Source: an uncultured Gemmatimonadota bacterium (GTDB lineage: Bacteria > Gemmatimonadota > Gemmatimonadetes > Gemmatimonadales > Gemmatimonadaceae). Taken from it: a stretch of 9,190 nt of DNA. Made by a program: the position numbers and the translations under genes. Location: NCBI GenBank assembly GCA_946478895.1, contig CAMLDY010000100.1, positions 1 through 9,190 on the forward strand, read 5' to 3'. Below the pieces are notes generated by a model. It searched no databases. It worked only from the letters and a program-made list of their open reading frames with translations, and was not told the DNA's origin. Below are positions 2,211 to 8,647 of the stretch, piece by piece; position 1 is the stretch's first letter, and each line of letters begins with the position of its first letter.

Positions 2211-2588
2211 GCGGGCCAGCTCTCGTACATAAGCGGGCAGCGGCAAGCTTTACAGCTTGCTACGCTGATGGCTTGTCGCGGGTTTCGGACCTGGCCGCTT
2301 CGGGTACATCTAACAATACTGAAGCACGGAGCCGTCACCTGCTGAGCAGCTATGCCCAGAGCACGTCACGTTCAGATCTTTTCGCGCTTCCAGTTGCGGA
2401 CTAGGGCGACGAGACACGATGCGCCCCGAGAGCTCTCGGCGTAGCAGCTCTCCCGCGATCGGCTCCGTGCGTTCTTTCATGTGGTGGCCAGCCGAAGCGC
2501 CCGACGCTGTACGCGGAGAAACCAACAAACAGCTGTCGGCGTAGCTGCTGTGAGGCTTGCAGCTGCCCGCTTATGTATTGTTAGGTGT
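2211..2588. repeat. Palindromic element A: a ~188-bp copy nested in a second ~190-bp copy
   Basis: A long imperfect palindrome fills most of the gap between the divergent peptidase and ATP-grasp genes. The outer arms (2211-2304 and 2493-2588) carry the family end motif aagcgggcag (2231-2240, inverted at 2563-2572) followed by related gctacgc-containing arms. They also pair next to the inner copy (cgcttcgg 2296-2303 with ccgaagcg 2492-2499). The inner part, about 2305-2492, is itself palindromic (gcacggagccg 2324-2334 with its exact inverse at 2460-2470). In reverse orientation it aligns along its length with element B, including the shared terminus gctggccaccacatgaaag. Removing the inner copy leaves about 190 bp, the size of element B, so one copy probably inserted into the centre of another. 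An open frame crossing the inner copy on the minus strand (2310-2528) is interrupted in copy B and is not called as a gene. Confidence 0.75.
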
Positions 2589-2626
2589 TGACGAAGCGCC
2601 CGACTTTATCCGCCGAGACCGCCAGA

Positions 2627-3727
2627 ATGTCTGCCCCGATCGCGATCTACTACGAGCACCCCGACTGGTTCAAACCCCTCTTCGCCGAGCTCGATCGTCG
2701 CGGCGTTCCGTACGTGCGGATCGATGCGACCTCGCACTTTTACGATCCGTCGGAAACGACGTCACCGTATTCACTCGTATTCAATCGCGCCAGTCCGTCG
2801 GCGTACATGCGCGGACACGGGCAGGTCACCTTTCACACCCTTAGCTGGCTGCGCCACCTCGAGCGCATCGGTGTCCCGGTAGTGAACGGCGCCGACGTTT
2901 ACGAGATGGAGACCTCGAAGGCGCTACAGCTCGAGATCCTCGAGGAGCTCGCGCTGCCGTACCCGAGAGCGCGCGTGATCAACGATGCAGCGCAGGCAGC
3001 GGAGGCGGCGCGCGGCCTGCGCTTCCCGGTGATCGTCAAGGCGAACATCGGTGGCAGCGGGGCCGGGATCACCCGATTCGACGACGCCGCTTCGCTCGCC
3101 ACCGCGGCGCGCGCGGGGACGATTGGCCTCGGCATCGACAACGTCGCGCTCGTGCAGGAGCTCGCTCCACTTCGCGACGCGCACATCACCCGCGTCGAAG
3201 TCTTGAACGGAAAATTCCTGTACGCGATCAACGTCTATCCGGCCGAGGATTCGTTCAACCTTTGCCCGGCCGACATCTGCCAGACGACCGACGGCCAGCA
3301 GCTTTCGCGGACTGCCTGCGCGGTCGACGCCGTTAAGAACGGAATGCGAGTCGAACAGTTCACGCCCCCGCGCGAGATCGTGCGCCAGGTCGAGCACATC
3401 GCGCAGCGTGTGAAGCTCGACGTCGGCGGCATCGAGTATCTGATCGACGACCGCGATGGCAAGCCTTACTACTACGACATCAACGCGCTGTCGAATTTCG
3501 TCGCCGATGCGCGCAACGTGGTCGGCTTCGATCCGTTCGAGAGGCTCGTTGATTATCTGGAGGAGCGGGCGGGCGGACTGGATTCGGGAGGCGGGAAGCT
3601 GGAGACGGGAGGCGCAATGCGCGCAGCGCTCGACGACCGCGCTCTCACTTCCAGCATGGACGGAGACCCTGCCTCGCGCGCTGCGCAGCCCGCTTCCCGC
3701 CTCCCGCTTCCCGCTTCCCGCCAATGA
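2627..3727 (+). CDS. ATP-grasp ligase (RimK-like)
   Basis: A 366-residue cytoplasmic ATP-grasp enzyme, expected to activate a carboxylate as an acyl phosphate and join it to an amine or other nucleophile; the substrate is unknown. Residues 1-95 form a Rossmann-like pre-ATP-grasp domain. ATP-binding features follow: K138 in FPVIVKAN, a glycine-rich loop at 142-147, the adenine-side hinge E177 (VQELA), and metal ligands E270 (GIEYLID) and N286 (YYYDINALSNF). I chose the ATG at 2627 because MSAPIAIYYEHP begins the conserved fold; the in-frame GTG at 2585 lies in the end of element A. The ribosome site is weak. Conserved sequence ends near residue 315. The last ~50 residues are low complexity, with PASR three times at 7-residue spacing, and are encoded by an inverted repeat. 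The stop overlaps the next gene's start (ATGA), so the two are probably co-translated. RimK-type peptide ligase is the best general class. Confidence 0.88.
   Translation: MSAPIAIYYEHPDWFKPLFAELDRRGVPYVRIDATSHFYDPSETTSPYSLVFNRASPSAYMRGHGQVTFHTLSWLRHLERIGVPVVNGADVYEMETSKALQLEILEELALPYPRARVINDAAQAAEAARGLRFPVIVKANIGGSGAGITRFDDAASLATAARAGTIGLGIDNVALVQELAPLRDAHITRVEVLNGKFLYAINVYPAEDSFNLCPADICQTTDGQQLSRTACAVDAVKNGMRVEQFTPPREIVRQVEHIAQRVKLDVGGIEYLIDDRDGKPYYYDINALSNFVADARNVVGFDPFERLVDYLEERAGGLDSGGGKLETGGAMRAALDDRALTSSMDGDPASRAAQPASRLPLPASRQ
3585..3706. repeat. Inverted repeat of the cgggaggcgggaagc type inside the ATP-grasp gene end
   Basis: A perfect 15-bp inverted repeat (3585-3599 and 3692-3706). 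The right arm continues into further gcttccc units up to 3719. Another gggaggc unit lies just inside the left arm, and gcgcagcgc-type pairing lies between the arms. It is read through as coding sequence and makes the Gly- and PASR-rich tail of the ATP-grasp protein. It ends a few bases before the start codon of the monooxygenase, so in mRNA the hairpin would lie directly over the junction between the two genes. It looks like an inserted interspersed repeat rather than ancestral coding sequence. Confidence 0.7.
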
Positions 3728-4788
3728 GATACGGCTACTGGCTCCCCGTCTTCGGCGGCTGGCTGCGCAACGTACCCGACGAGGGTATGACCGCCAGCTG
3801 GGATTACGTGAAGCGACTCGCGCAGCGCAGCGAGCAGATTGGCTACGACATCACGTTAATAGCCGAGCTGTTCATGAACGACATCAAGGGCATCGACTCC
3901 AACTCGCTCGAGGCGTGGTCGACGGCTGCGGCGCTCGCGGCGGTGACCGAGCGACTCGAGCTGATGGTCGCGGTCCGGCCGACGTTTCACGAGCCCGCGA
4001 TCTTCGCCAAGCAGGCCGCCAACATCGACCACATCTCGAACGGCCGGCTCGCGCTCAACGTCGTATCGTCGTGGTGGAAGGACGAGGCGCGCCGCTACGG
4101 TATTCACTTCGAGGAGCACGACGACCGTTACGCGCGAACCGACGAGTGGCTGCGCGTCGTCAACGGAACGTGGAATGAGGCGCGCTTCAGCCACAGCGGC
4201 AAGCACTACAAGGTCGAGGAGACGATCCTCGAGCCCAAACCCGGGCGCCGGCCGCGGCCGACCATTTATGCCGGCGGCGAAAGTGCGGCCGCCAAGGAGC
4301 TGATCTCACGCGCCTGCGATGCTTACGTGATGCACGGAGATCCACCCGAGCGCGTCGCGCCCAAGATCGCCGACATGATCGCGCGCAGAGAGAAGCTCGG
4401 ACTCGGCCCGATGCAGTACGGCGTCGCCGCCTACGCGGTCGTGCGTGACACGGAGGAGGAAGCGAAGGAAGAGCTCACCCGTATCACCAACGTCCAACCG
4501 GGGTCGCCGGGCTACCAGAATTATCAGGACTGGATCGCTCACACTGCTCTGGAGCAGCAGGTCTCGCTCGAGGATTACTCGGTCTCGAACCGCGGACTCC
4601 GCGCCGGCCTCGTCGGAACGCCCGAGCAGGTCGCCGACCGGGTCCGCGAGTTCGAGTCGGTCGGGGTGGATCTCTTGTTACTCCAGTTCAGTCCGCAGCT
4701 GGAGGAGATGGAAAGATTCTCTGAAACTGTGATGCCCTTGGTAGCATCTCGGCGTACGGACTCGGCAGCGGTGCTGGCCACCACATGA
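3724..4788 (+). CDS. LLM-class FMN-dependent monooxygenase (SsuD/SfnG-like)
   Basis: A 354-residue luciferase-like TIM-barrel flavoenzyme, expected to use reduced FMN from a separate reductase and O2 to oxidise a small substrate. The sequence resembles alkanesulfonate and dimethyl-sulfone monooxygenases: MRYGYWLPVFGGWL at the N-terminus, NVVSSWWKDEARRYG (112-126), EHDDRYARTDEWLR (131-144), the AGGES phosphate-binding region (183-187) and the C-terminal GTPEQVADRVREF segment (298-310). The substrate cannot be read from the sequence, and no SsuE-like reductase, sulfonate transporter or sulfur-starvation gene is present, so a role with the upstream ATP-grasp ligase is as likely as sulfur scavenging. 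The start codon overlaps the ligase stop by ATGA and is preceded only by a C-rich repeat without a Shine-Dalgarno, which implies translational coupling. The last codons (VLATT) and the stop lie within palindromic element B. Confidence 0.9.
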   Translation: MRYGYWLPVFGGWLRNVPDEGMTASWDYVKRLAQRSEQIGYDITLIAELFMNDIKGIDSNSLEAWSTAAALAAVTERLELMVAVRPTFHEPAIFAKQAANIDHISNGRLALNVVSSWWKDEARRYGIHFEEHDDRYARTDEWLRVVNGTWNEARFSHSGKHYKVEETILEPKPGRRPRPTIYAGGESAAAKELISRACDAYVMHGDPPERVAPKIADMIARREKLGLGPMQYGVAAYAVVRDTEEEAKEELTRITNVQPGSPGYQNYQDWIAHTALEQQVSLEDYSVSNRGLRAGLVGTPEQVADRVREFESVGVDLLLLQFSPQLEEMERFSETVMPLVASRRTDSAAVLATT

Positions 4789-5833: not shown

Positions 5834-5897
5834 GAACCTTGGCCCGGCGCCGTGTTATCTTCGAGGGGTCGAAACAGTCATTTAGTCGACCTGCCAC

Positions 5898-5903
5898 TAT
5901 AGA
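5898..5903 (+). promoter_or_regulatory. Possible -10 element for the ATPase fusion gene
   Basis: TATAGA lies 32 bp before the ATG. A poor -35 (cagtca, 5875-5880) stands at 17-bp spacing. The ribosome site is ambiguous: GGAAG at 5929-5933 is only 2 nt from the ATG, and AGGAAG at 5914-5919 is 16 nt away, so neither is well placed. Confidence 0.3.
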
Positions 5904-5935
5904 GCAGCAGGACAGGAAGTGCCCCACCGGAAGCC

Positions 5936-8647
5936 ATGACGACACCTGCTGATCCACAGCCCAACGAGCGAAGATACCGCTTCAAGGACGAGTGGCTGGT
6001 TTCGCTAGTCGGGACCATGCCCGGCGTTACGCCGGAGCTCATAAAGCGGTGGCGCTTTCAGCAGAAACCCTACATCTCGCAGGCGCTGATCGATGGCGAC
6101 GTCCTCTCCTTCCACGAGATCGCCGAGGTCGTCAAGGACGCCTTTAGAATCGACTACGTCGATTTGAGCCCGGGCGGCATCGACAAGAACGCGATGCAGA
6201 TTCTTCCCGAAAAGCTCTGTCGGGAGCACAGTGTCCTTCCCGTAAAAGTCGATAGCCGGATGGTCCATCTGGCGATGGCCAACCCGCTCGATCAGGAAGC
6301 AATCCAGAGAGTGAGCTGGGCGACGAGCCGCGAAGTGACGCCGCTCTTCTGCCCGCCCGGCCAGCTCGACAAGCTGGTCTCCGAGACACTGCGCCCGGAT
6401 GCCATGATCTACGGCCTCATCGAGAAACTCGATCAGGCGGTTGGAGTCGAGCAGGTCAAGGAAGAGGAGCAGGACGAAGCCCAGATGGCGCGCGTGCATG
6501 CGCCGGTCATCAAGCTCGTCGATGCAATCATCGCCAACGCCATCAAGTTGCGCGCGTCCGACATCCACATCGAGCACGACGAGACGAACACCCTGGTGCG
6601 CTTCCGTATCGACGGATTGCTCAAGAACATCATGGTGCTGCCGCGGTTCATCGGCGTCGGACCGGTCGTGTCGCGCGTGAAGATCATGTCGGATCTCGAC
6701 GTCGCCGAGCGCTTCCGACCACAGGACGGCCGCGCCAAGGTGCGTGTAGCCGGTGAAGAAGTCGCACTGCGCGTGTCGGTTCTTCCAACGCGCGTCGGCG
6801 AAAAAGTCGTGATGCGTCTGCTCAACGAGAAGTCGGTGCAGGTCTCGATGGGCACCCTGGGCTTCATGCCCGAAGTCCTCGAGAGATTCAAGGCATTGCT
6901 GATGCGGGAGCAGGGAATCCTGCTCGTCACCGGGCCGACAGGGTCGGGCAAGACGACAACGCTCTACGCCGCGCTCAACACCCGTCGCGGCGAGTCCGTC
7001 AACATCGTCACGGTCGAAGATCCGGTCGAGTACCGGTTGAGCGGTGTCAATCAGGTCCAGGTCAATGAGAAGCAGGGGCTGACTTTCGCCGGAGTTCTTC
7101 GCTCCGTTCTCCGTCAGGATCCCGATGTCTTGCTCGTCGGCGAGATCCGCGATCAGGAAACGGCGACCATCGCTTTCCAGGCGGCGATGACCGGCCACCT
7201 CGTGCTCTCGACGCTACACACCAACGACGCCATCGGCGCCATCCCGCGGCTTTCGAATATCGGCGTCGAGCCGTTCCGCGTCGCGGCGGGATTGATCGGC
7301 GTGACGGCGCAGCGTCTGGTCCGGCGTATCTGCCCGCATTGCCGGTACGAGGCGCCGATCGAGGAGCTGCACCCGATGGTCCGCTCGGCGCAGCAACGTC
7401 TGTTCGGCAAGGCCAGACACGTCAAGGCCACCGGATGCGCGGAGTGTGGGTTCAGCGGCTACACCGGTCGTTTGCCGCTGATCGAGTTCCTCGAGATCAC
7501 CCCGGAAATTCGCGGGATGATCACGACCGGAAAGATGGCCGACGAGATTCGTGCTCACGCCCTGCGAACCGGCGCGCTCCACACCTTCGACAACGACGCG
7601 CTCTGGCACATCGCCGAAGGCGACACCACCGCCGAAGAAGTCATTCCGTACACCGAGTTCGAGCGACGCCGTACCCCGCGCACTGCGACACCGCGCGTCA
7701 ACGCCGATTTCGTCCCCGAGCTCGACGCCGACGGCGTGGTCAAGCCGCCGCGCATTCTTCTCGCGGTCGCGGACAAGGAAGAGCGGGTGCGCTTCAACGA
7801 CATCCTCGTCGAAGCGCGCTTCGCCGTCCAGATCGCCAACGACGGCGCCGCCACGCTCGGCATCCTCGCGCAGGATCCGCCCGACGCGCTCGTCGTCGGG
7901 TTGAAGCTCCCGATCCTCGACGGCCGCCAGGTGGTCCACGCCGCGCGCACCGTCGTCGGATTGGTTGACATGCCTATCATCGTCATTGCGCCCGCCGGAA
8001 CTGAGGGCGAAACGAGCGACCTGCTGTCGCAGGGCGTCGACGACGTTCTTCACGAGCCGCTCGACGCCGCCCGCTTCCGCGGCCGCGTCACGACGGTAAT
8101 GCGGAGCCGCGGACTATGGGCGGAGACCGAAGAAGTGATGCGGCCGCTGATTCCTCAGGACGAAGCCGAGCGCCTCGTCGAGTTCAGGCTGAGCACGGCA
8201 ATCGACAGCGCTCCCGAAGAGCGCTTCGACAAGATCACCCGCATGGCGCAGCGGATGTTCAACGTGCCATTCGCGGGTGTCTCGTTCGTCGAAGGCGAGC
8301 GGCAGTGGTTCAAGTCGAGGCAAGGCTTGCAGATCGGCGACAGCGCCCGCGACATGTCATTCTGCGGCCATGCGATCACCGGCACCGAAGTGTTCGTGAT
8401 CGAGGATACGGTGCTCGACCCCAGATTTGCGCAGAACCCGCTCGTGCTCGAGGAGCCGCGGATCCGGTTCTACGCGGGACAGCCGGTGCGCGGGCCAGGC
8501 GGCCACAATGTCGGCACCTTATGCATCATGGACAAGCAGCCGCGCGAGTTCACGGACGATGACCGCGACAGTCTGCGCGACCTCGGTGAGCTGGTCGAGA
8601 AAGAGCTGCGCGCGAAGCCGACCAAGGTCGAAGCGCCGCCAGACTAG
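5936..8647 (+). CDS. GspE/PilB-type secretion ATPase fused to a pseudo-receiver and a GAF domain
   Basis: A 903-residue three-part protein. Residues 1-575 are a complete type II secretion/type IV pilus assembly ATPase: a GspE N-terminal domain (about 55-150), then the motor core with Walker A GPTGSGKT (333-340), Asp box VTVEDPVEY (358-366), Walker B region VLLVGEIRD with E403, His box around 420-431 and a zinc-site tetracysteine C466/C469/C501/C504. The normal family length is about 570 residues. A linker (576-603) leads to a receiver-like fold (604-722) in which the phospho-acceptor is G655, the acidic pair is V611/A612, the switch Thr is A685 and the conserved Lys is E707, so phosphorylation is not expected. 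Residues 745-892 are a GAF domain (ERFDKITRMAQRMF, QWFKSRQGL, SFCGHAI, TLCIMD). The frame is continuous with no sign of an assembly join. No platform protein, pilin or secretin gene is nearby. It probably powers pilus or secretion assembly under signal control, or is a repurposed regulatory ATPase. Confidence 0.93.
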   Translation: MTTPADPQPNERRYRFKDEWLVSLVGTMPGVTPELIKRWRFQQKPYISQALIDGDVLSFHEIAEVVKDAFRIDYVDLSPGGIDKNAMQILPEKLCREHSVLPVKVDSRMVHLAMANPLDQEAIQRVSWATSREVTPLFCPPGQLDKLVSETLRPDAMIYGLIEKLDQAVGVEQVKEEEQDEAQMARVHAPVIKLVDAIIANAIKLRASDIHIEHDETNTLVRFRIDGLLKNIMVLPRFIGVGPVVSRVKIMSDLDVAERFRPQDGRAKVRVAGEEVALRVSVLPTRVGEKVVMRLLNEKSVQVSMGTLGFMPEVLERFKALLMREQGILLVTGPTGSGKTTTLYAALNTRRGESVNIVTVEDPVEYRLSGVNQVQVNEKQGLTFAGVLRSVLRQDPDVLLVGEIRDQETATIAFQAAMTGHLVLSTLHTNDAIGAIPRLSNIGVEPFRVAAGLIGVTAQRLVRRICPHCRYEAPIEELHPMVRSAQQRLFGKARHVKATGCAECGFSGYTGRLPLIEFLEITPEIRGMITTGKMADEIRAHALRTGALHTFDNDALWHIAEGDTTAEEVIPYTEFERRRTPRTATPRVNADFVPELDADGVVKPPRILLAVADKEERVRFNDILVEARFAVQIANDGAATLGILAQDPPDALVVGLKLPILDGRQVVHAARTVVGLVDMPIIVIAPAGTEGETSDLLSQGVDDVLHEPLDAARFRGRVTTVMRSRGLWAETEEVMRPLIPQDEAERLVEFRLSTAIDSAPEERFDKITRMAQRMFNVPFAGVSFVEGERQWFKSRQGLQIGDSARDMSFCGHAITGTEVFVIEDTVLDPRFAQNPLVLEEPRIRFYAGQPVRGPGGHNVGTLCIMDKQPREFTDDDRDSLRDLGELVEKELRAKPTKVEAPPD

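What the first reader, a model, noticed from the sequence alone, without database searches (positions are those of the whole stretch)
5936..8647. Secretion/pilus motor ATPase fused to receiver-like and GAF sensory domains
GspE/PilB ATPases normally end after the zinc site and C-terminal helices at about 570 residues. Here the motor core is complete with all nucleotide motifs, and ~325 residues of signalling modules follow in one uninterrupted frame. This could couple a small-molecule or redox signal (GAF) directly to pilus or secretion motor activity, or to hexamer assembly. I do not recall this architecture as a characterised one.
Basis: partly seen in the sequence, partly recalled or inferred. 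Interest (0 to 1): 0.75.

Follow-up and report, generated by a model that had tools for sequence, protein, structure and literature searches.

The report
Pilus-type motor with a sensor tail
A bacterium that by its relatives belongs to the Gemmatimonadota makes a pilus-type motor enzyme with a worn-out signal receiver and a probable small-molecule sensor fused to its end; it belongs to a little-noticed set of such tailed motors whose genes sit apart from the pilus machinery, so it may be a signal-controlled spare motor.

Summary
One open frame (5936-8647, 903 aa) encodes an MshEN-like domain, a PilB/GspE ATPase core, a receiver-like domain and a GAF domain. It is no assembly error: 96 of the 120 best hits for the tail are PilB-type proteins, and the tail is under purifying selection.

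The interpretation needs changing. (1) The receiver lost its phosphotransfer residues: acid pair, acceptor Asp, Thr/Ser and Lys are gone in 71 of 71 close full-length members. (2) No pilus genes were found beside it. An 89%-identical orthologue lies in a genome with four PilB-type ATPases but one detected PilC platform gene. (3) In 25 genomes of the phylum, 0 of 36 platform-linked ATPases have a C-terminal tail, against 26 of 31 detached ones (16 receiver, 5 NUDIX, 2 zinc ribbon, 2 unassigned, 1 of this kind). (4) The N-terminal c-di-GMP motif is found in 22 of 36 platform-linked ATPases but 0 of 32 receiver-, NUDIX- or GAF-tailed ones.

Best reading: one branch of a widespread class of detached, signal-tailed PilB-like motors that I did not find described. 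The ligand, and the pilus role itself, are inferred.

The parts
5936..8647 (+). Gene for the 903-aa MshEN-like / T2SSE ATPase / pseudo-receiver / GAF protein
6143..6388 (+). MshEN-like N-terminal domain (residues 70-151), without the c-di-GMP motif
   Evidence: Pfam PF05157; motif search
6497..7642 (+). PilB/GspE-type ATPase core (residues 188-569) with Walker A/B, Asp and His boxes and Zn site
   Evidence: PF00437, 421.5 bits; residues invariant; best structure matches are PilB, PilF and GspE
6932..6955 (+). Walker A GPTGSGKT (residues 333-340)
   Evidence: 37 of 37
7661..7744 (+). Low-confidence, probably flexible linker (residues 576-603)
   Evidence: pLDDT below 50
7748..8104 (+). Pseudo-receiver domain (residues 605-723) lacking acid pair, acceptor Asp, Thr/Ser and Lys
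   Evidence: PF00072 just over cut-off; residue table
8213..8596 (+). GAF domain (residues 760-887)
   Evidence: PF13185; sequence match to the diguanylate cyclase structure 4zmu
5853..5935 (+). Conserved non-coding leader directly upstream of the ATG
   Evidence: 10-locus alignment, 48 invariant columns; no Rfam family at gathering score
4991..5746 (-). Divergent Crp/Fnr-type regulator gene, found beside the fusion gene in 9 of 9 close loci that reach far enough upstream; not in divergent L010
   Evidence: PF13545; synteny

Best explanation
The protein is a PilB-like ATPase from a class of detached (platform-less) PilB homologues whose cores form one clade. In this class the N-terminal c-di-GMP motif is mostly gone and an exchangeable C-terminal module is present. 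In relatives the module is an intact receiver or a NUDIX domain. In this branch the receiver has decayed into a structural or protein-contact domain, and a GAF domain supplies the input. Most likely the ATPase is an accessory extension motor, comparable to TfpB of Acinetobacter baylyi, that engages the cell's PilC platform (or joins PilB there) when the GAF domain binds its ligand; the neighbouring Crp/Fnr-type regulator may control expression. Shown here: architecture, loss of receiver and c-di-GMP residues, detachment from platform genes in relatives, one clade of cores. Inferred: hexamer, GAF ligand, the pilus as target, control by the regulator.
For: Catalytic residues intact in 37 of 37. 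Orthologue's genome G001 has 4 PilB-type ATPases and one PilC gene (two T2SSF repeats) 186 kb away on the same contig. In 25 genomes tails of 60 aa or more occur in 26 of 31 full-length detached ATPases and 0 of 36 platform-linked ones (Fisher p 6e-14). Core tree of 53 rows: 38 rows (the tailed ones, the Elusimicrobiota pair, both unassigned tails) form one clade, 97/91. Relaxed c-di-GMP RLG motif in 22 of 36 platform-linked ATPases (3 of the 36 have too short an N-terminus) and 0 of 16 receiver-, 0 of 5 NUDIX- and 0 of 11 pseudo-receiver/GAF-tailed ones. Receivers intact at all five positions in 17 of 17 receiver-tailed relatives aligned, absent in this branch. REC tree joins the pseudo-receivers to the intact REC of the Elusimicrobiota PilB L012, 99/98. 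Precedent for two extension ATPases in one system: TfpB/PilB (PMC11656802, section 11 read).
Against: No pilus, platform or pilin gene was found linked to the gene, so a pilus role rests on homology. The review section read says extension ATPases are generally system-specific. The genomes are largely multi-contig drafts, so a missed second platform cannot be excluded, and the window's own genome is not held. The motif loss is not tied strictly to tails: 1 of 5 untailed detached ATPases shows it (L075) and 14 of 36 platform-linked ones do not; 1 of 2 zinc-ribbon-tailed ones has it. Receiver class 2 groups with kinase receivers in the REC tree (95/91), so tails may have been gained more than once. 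The two GAF cysteines are shared by other GAF proteins (17 of 24 have both motifs). Domain packing in the model is uncertain (pTM 0.48). NCBIfam PilB, GspE and TfpB cut-offs are missed.
Confidence: 0.47

Rival explanations
1. The tailed class no longer works on pili at all. The ATPase has been recruited as a signalling or assembly machine for another process, such as envelope work or turnover of a nucleotide signal; the window protein is the ligand-gated member.
For: No pilus genes found nearby. The receiver-1 and NUDIX classes share neighbours: a weakly DUF5686-like gene in 15 of 17 loci against 1 of 20 control stretches, and a separate NUDIX gene within about 2.2 kb of 8 of 11 receiver-1 PilBs against 0 of 20. 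A NUDIX fusion is shown by 120 of 120 listed hits.
Against: The window's branch has neither neighbour (0 of 8 loci). Motor residues are fully kept. The neighbour profiles were trained on some of the loci counted, and only 1 of 7 DUF5686-like proteins scanned passes the Pfam cut-off.
Confidence: 0.3
2. The tail is a localisation or oligomerisation device: the pseudo-receiver and GAF dimerise or bind a partner and place the motor, with no ligand sensing.
For: Pseudo-receiver about as conserved as the N-terminal domain (dN/dS 0.07 and 0.06). FimX has a receiver without the acceptor Asp, and its deletion was reported to mislocalise pilus assembly (PMC11656802 passage).
Against: The GAF keeps the signature of its GAF subclass (invariant F809 C810 H812, D828 P829 F831, R844 F845 Y846 A847 in 37 rows), which suggests more than a passive spacer.
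Confidence: 0.17
3. Assembly or annotation error joining two genes.
For: None found.
Against: 96 PilB-type relatives among the 120 best tail hits; whole orthologues in several separately assembled MAGs; linkers under selection.
Confidence: 0.01

Closest known systems
PilB / GspE type IV pilus and type II secretion extension ATPases (PF00437)
   Same: Core with the catalytic and zinc residues; 46% identity to Geobacter PilB 5tsh in the structure alignment
   Different: Misses the NCBIfam PilB and GspE cut-offs (512 of 675.65 and 527 of 630.25 bits); no platform gene found beside it; about 330-residue tail
TfpB of Acinetobacter baylyi, a second extension ATPase
   Same: Extra extension-type ATPase in a cell that already has PilB (PMC11656802, section 11 read)
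   Different: Misses the TfpB model (439.5 of 850 bits); a GAF tail on TfpB is not mentioned in the section read
MshE / MshEN c-di-GMP-binding ATPases
   Same: MshEN domain at the N-terminus
   Different: RLG c-di-GMP motif absent (motif from PMC5013675 passages)
PilB-REC proteins of Gemmatimonadota and Elusimicrobiota (no name found in the literature searched)
   Same: Same clade in the core tree; receiver at the same place
   Different: Receiver intact in the 17 rows aligned; no GAF in the tails read
PilB-NUDIX proteins of Gemmatimonadota (no name found in the literature searched)
   Same: Detached, tailed, same clade
   Different: Tail is a NUDIX domain (PF00293; the Nudix box, recalled, is visible by eye in the 4 tails printed)
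FimX
   Same: Pilus regulator with a receiver lacking the acceptor Asp (PMC11656802 passage)
   Different: Separate protein with PAS, GGDEF and EAL domains, not fused to the motor

Membership tests
PilB/GspE extension ATPase | Walker A/B, Asp and His boxes, tetra-Cys zinc site | tested here: met
   37 of 37 for the key residues and three Cys; 36 of 37 for C504
PilB/GspE extension ATPase | Reaches the curated equivalog score | tested here: not met
   TIGR02533 527 of 630.25; TIGR02538 512 of 675.65
PilB/GspE extension ATPase | Gene linked to a T2SSF/PilC platform | tested here: not met
   None among the window genes scanned; orthologue 186 kb from the only platform gene detected in G001; window's own genome not held
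TfpB accessory ATPase | NCBIfam TfpB model | tested here: not met
   439.5 of 850 bits
MshEN c-di-GMP receptor | Two RLGxx...LxxxLxxQ motifs | tested here: not met
   0 of 11 family members, even with a relaxed pattern
Response regulator receiver | Acid pair, phospho-acceptor Asp, Thr/Ser, Lys | tested here: not met
   Lost in 71 of 71 close members; of 6 distant members 3 keep Asp at the acceptor site, none the full set
GAF domain | Profile match over cut-off | tested here: met
   PF13185 37.5 bits, cut-off 28.6
GAF domain as ligand sensor | Binds a small molecule | not testable with these tools
   No ligand inferred

The most novel reading that the evidence does not exclude
The tailed PilB-like ATPases are a separate, widespread machine class in Gemmatimonadota (with kin in Elusimicrobiota): signal-processing motors without a platform of their own, whose C-terminal module is swapped between receiver, NUDIX enzyme, zinc ribbon and pseudo-receiver/GAF, so that phosphorelay, nucleotide and small-molecule signals feed the same kind of motor.
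Probability: 0.35. Interest if true: 0.8.

Novelty: new variant of a known kind. Interest (0 to 1): 0.6.

Why it matters
From the papers looked at, control of pilus extension motors is described through separate partner proteins (PilZ, FimX; PMC11656802 passages) or the N-terminal c-di-GMP site (PMC5013675 passages). Here control modules appear to be built into the C-terminus of detached motors and exchanged between branches. That makes the question of why bacteria keep several PilB homologues testable in a group where each motor carries a label of what it may listen to.

Tried and rejected
Considered and rejected: assembly error; phosphorylation of this receiver; c-di-GMP control through MshEN; special chemistry of the GAF cysteines, since other GAF proteins share them. 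A viral-contig scan found no relative. The idea that metallo-beta-lactamase/REC/GAF proteins lie in the same genomes was not supported: 22 of 61 phylum genomes matched P0107, but those matches cover only residues 1-305 of 605, its lactamase part; the REC tree does join the two modules (99/97). The conserved leader gave no Rfam family at gathering score, no compensatory pair change and no promoter match. The pattern scan is void: its gap was too short to match even G001; with a correct gap on 4 genomes it found one copy in each of G001, G137 and G062 and none in G175.

Full report
Observation. The window holds one 903-codon frame at 5936-8647 (+). Pfam gives MshEN (70-151), T2SSE (188-569), Response_reg (618-717, barely over cut-off) and GAF_2 (760-887). 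The other five window genes scanned are an M28 peptidase, an ATP-grasp protein, a luciferase-like monooxygenase, a Crp/Fnr-type regulator and a glyoxalase.

The fusion is real. A search with residues 585-903 (1339 proteins at E 1e-5 or better among the 7995 candidates scored, 120 listed) returned 96 PilB-type proteins among the 120; 90 (P0001-P0090) have 73-86% identity over the tail and six (P0091-P0095, P0099) 40-46%. Where sources give an organism for these, it is a Gemmatimonadota taxon; most give none. The other 24 are metallo-beta-lactamase/REC/GAF proteins and GAF-containing kinases or response regulators. The genome-contig scan (an alignment of seven N-termini) gave 13 loci: L001-L009 at 85-93% identity (titles name Gemmatimonadota taxa except L008, an unidentified bacterium), L011 (Gemmatimonadetes, 91%), L010 (49%) and two Elusimicrobiota (29-32%). 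Rough dN/dS over 8 orthologous genes is low in every part: N-terminus 0.06, core 0.04, linkers 0.08 and 0.04, pseudo-receiver 0.07, GAF 0.13.

The receiver is a pseudo-receiver. In 71 close full-length members (window included) the acceptor position is G (66), A (4) or S (1); the acid-pair positions are V/I/L and A/S/G/T; the Thr/Ser position is A (69) or V (2); the Lys position is E (68) or D (3). Of 6 distant members 3 keep Asp at the acceptor site but none the full set. The model has mean pLDDT 77.8 and pTM 0.48, so domain packing is not reliable; linkers 576-603 and 724-733 are below 50. Foldseek's best PDB matches are PilB, PilF and GspE.

A class of tailed, detached motors. The window's own genome is not held, so I used G001, the genome of L011, whose orthologue is 89% identical over the full length with conserved neighbours (output partly cut). 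G001 has four PilB-type ATPases but T2SSF matches only in one PilC gene, next to the canonical PilB/PilT pair.

In a 25-genome sample PF00437 and PF00482 hits were paired by distance (both lists typed by hand). I took 68 ATPase rows: the 65 above 360 bits and three partial ones; five rows of 208-223 bits and those below about 173 bits were left out as TadA- or PilT-type, judged by score and length; the list is capped. Thirty-six lie within 12 kb of a platform gene and all 36 end 5-13 residues after the core; three of these are short frames (232, 233, 410 aa) that still reach the core's end. Thirty-two are detached; one is a fragment at a contig end (L168). Of the other 31, 26 have a tail of 60 residues or more: 25 fetched anew, of which Pfam calls receiver 16, NUDIX 5, zinc ribbon 2 and neither 2 (L090, by eye a decayed receiver; L092, unassigned), and the pseudo-receiver/GAF protein of G001. 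The five without a tail are L066, L068, L070, L072 and L075. So 16 of 25 genomes have at least one detached ATPase with a receiver, NUDIX or receiver/GAF tail; G025 has only an unassigned tail, G007 and G017 zinc ribbons, and six (G002, G004, G006, G008, G019, G026) none. All 26 loci L028-L053 have a receiver tail; they were best hits to a query with a receiver, and five are the same genes as in the 25-genome sample. The larger database agrees: 120 of 120 listed hits (of 382) for a NUDIX tail and 120 of 120 listed (of 4121) for a receiver tail carry T2SSE plus that domain.

Phylogeny. In the core tree (53 rows, midpoint root) 38 rows form one clade, 97/91: all tailed ATPases, both unassigned ones and the two Elusimicrobiota proteins; without the zinc-ribbon pair 36 rows, 100/97. 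The window branch groups with the two Elusimicrobiota proteins (100/99) and is sister to the receiver and NUDIX classes (96/87). Four rows are long branches (L075, L101, L081, L102). The Elusimicrobiota pair sits inside the fusion branch beside P0091 with weak support (84/56), so loss of the GAF there is as possible as one gain elsewhere; the tail of L013 is cut by the contig end. In the REC tree the pseudo-receivers join the intact receiver of Elusimicrobiota L012 (99/98) and the metallo-beta-lactamase/REC/GAF proteins (99/97), with several long branches; receiver class 1 lies on the same side, but receiver class 2 groups with kinase receivers (95/91), so receiver tails may have been gained more than once. 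A PilB-REC ancestor whose receiver decayed is a reasonable but unproven history for this branch.

The c-di-GMP site. A relaxed form of the MshEN motif (RLGxx..., from PMC5013675 passages) occurs in 22 of 36 platform-linked ATPases (3 have too short an N-terminus; strict motif 7), 0 of 16 receiver-, 0 of 5 NUDIX- and 0 of 2 unassigned-tail ones, 1 of 2 zinc-ribbon ones, 1 of 5 untailed detached ones and 0 of 26 of L028-L053, and in 0 of 11 fusion members and not in L012. Loss of the motif therefore goes with detachment at least as much as with tails.

Neighbours. Receiver-type loci (16 plus L090) hold a histidine kinase in 10 of 17 against 4 of 20 control stretches (p 0.02, weak); NUDIX-class loci 0 of 6. 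Family scans confirmed hybrid kinases in L065, L077, L091, L067 and L090, and upstream of the Elusimicrobiota gene L012. A separate NUDIX gene lies within about 2.2 kb of 8 of 11 receiver-1 PilBs (0 of 20 controls), and a weakly DUF5686-like gene in 15 of 17 receiver-1 and NUDIX-class loci (1 of 20 controls); of 7 DUF5686-like proteins scanned 1 passes the Pfam cut-off, 4 score below it and 2 have no match. The profiles were built from some of these same loci, which leans towards the finding; the controls were hand-picked 13-kb stretches of the same genomes, while some test loci are only 8 kb. The pseudo-receiver/GAF loci have none of these except one kinase in 8. They share a divergent Crp/Fnr-type regulator and a conserved non-coding leader at 5853-5935.

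Literature. Searches listed no paper that by title or abstract start describes PilB-REC, PilB-GAF or PilB-NUDIX proteins in Gemmatimonadota; the library is open-access only. Passages of PMC10581226 mention type IV pili in the phylum but not these proteins. PMC11656802 (passages; section 11 in full) describes multiple PilB homologues and TfpB. Other papers were seen only as search listings.

Mechanism. Best supported: an accessory, signal-gated motor (0.47). Main rival: the class has left pili altogether (0.3). The evidence separates this protein clearly from a phosphorylated regulator and from a c-di-GMP-controlled PilB; what the GAF binds and what the motor moves are open.

Noticed in passing
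L064, L080, L084, L087, L089: PilB-like ATPases fused to a NUDIX domain (PF00293); 120 of 120 listed database hits share the fusion. In 8 of 11 receiver-1 loci the NUDIX is a separate gene nearby.
   Followed up: partly
window 5853-5935: Conserved leader of about 80 bases (48 invariant columns over 10 loci) with a CCTGC...GCAGG inverted repeat; one copy each in G001, G137 and G062, none in G175; no known RNA family.
   Followed up: partly
L074:3364-5436, L086:7486-11139, L064:8567-10642, L084:7850-9910, L092:7425-9650: Weakly DUF5686-like genes beside receiver-1 and NUDIX-class PilBs; one of the five passes the Pfam cut-off.
   Followed up: partly
L012:3-6771: Elusimicrobiota PilB-REC with a large hybrid kinase (GAF, PAS, Hpt) just upstream; its intact receiver is the closest to the window's pseudo-receiver in the REC tree.
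   Followed up: partly
P0097, P0100, P0104, P0107, P0109, P0112, P0116, P0120: Metallo-beta-lactamase-fold proteins with a REC-GAF tail related to the window's tail.
   Followed up: partly
L071, L081: Detached PilB-like ATPases ending in a double zinc ribbon.
   Followed up: no
window 2585-4788: ATP-grasp and luciferase-like monooxygenase genes whose frames overlap by 4 bases; relatives of both lie upstream of the fusion gene in most close loci.
   Followed up: no
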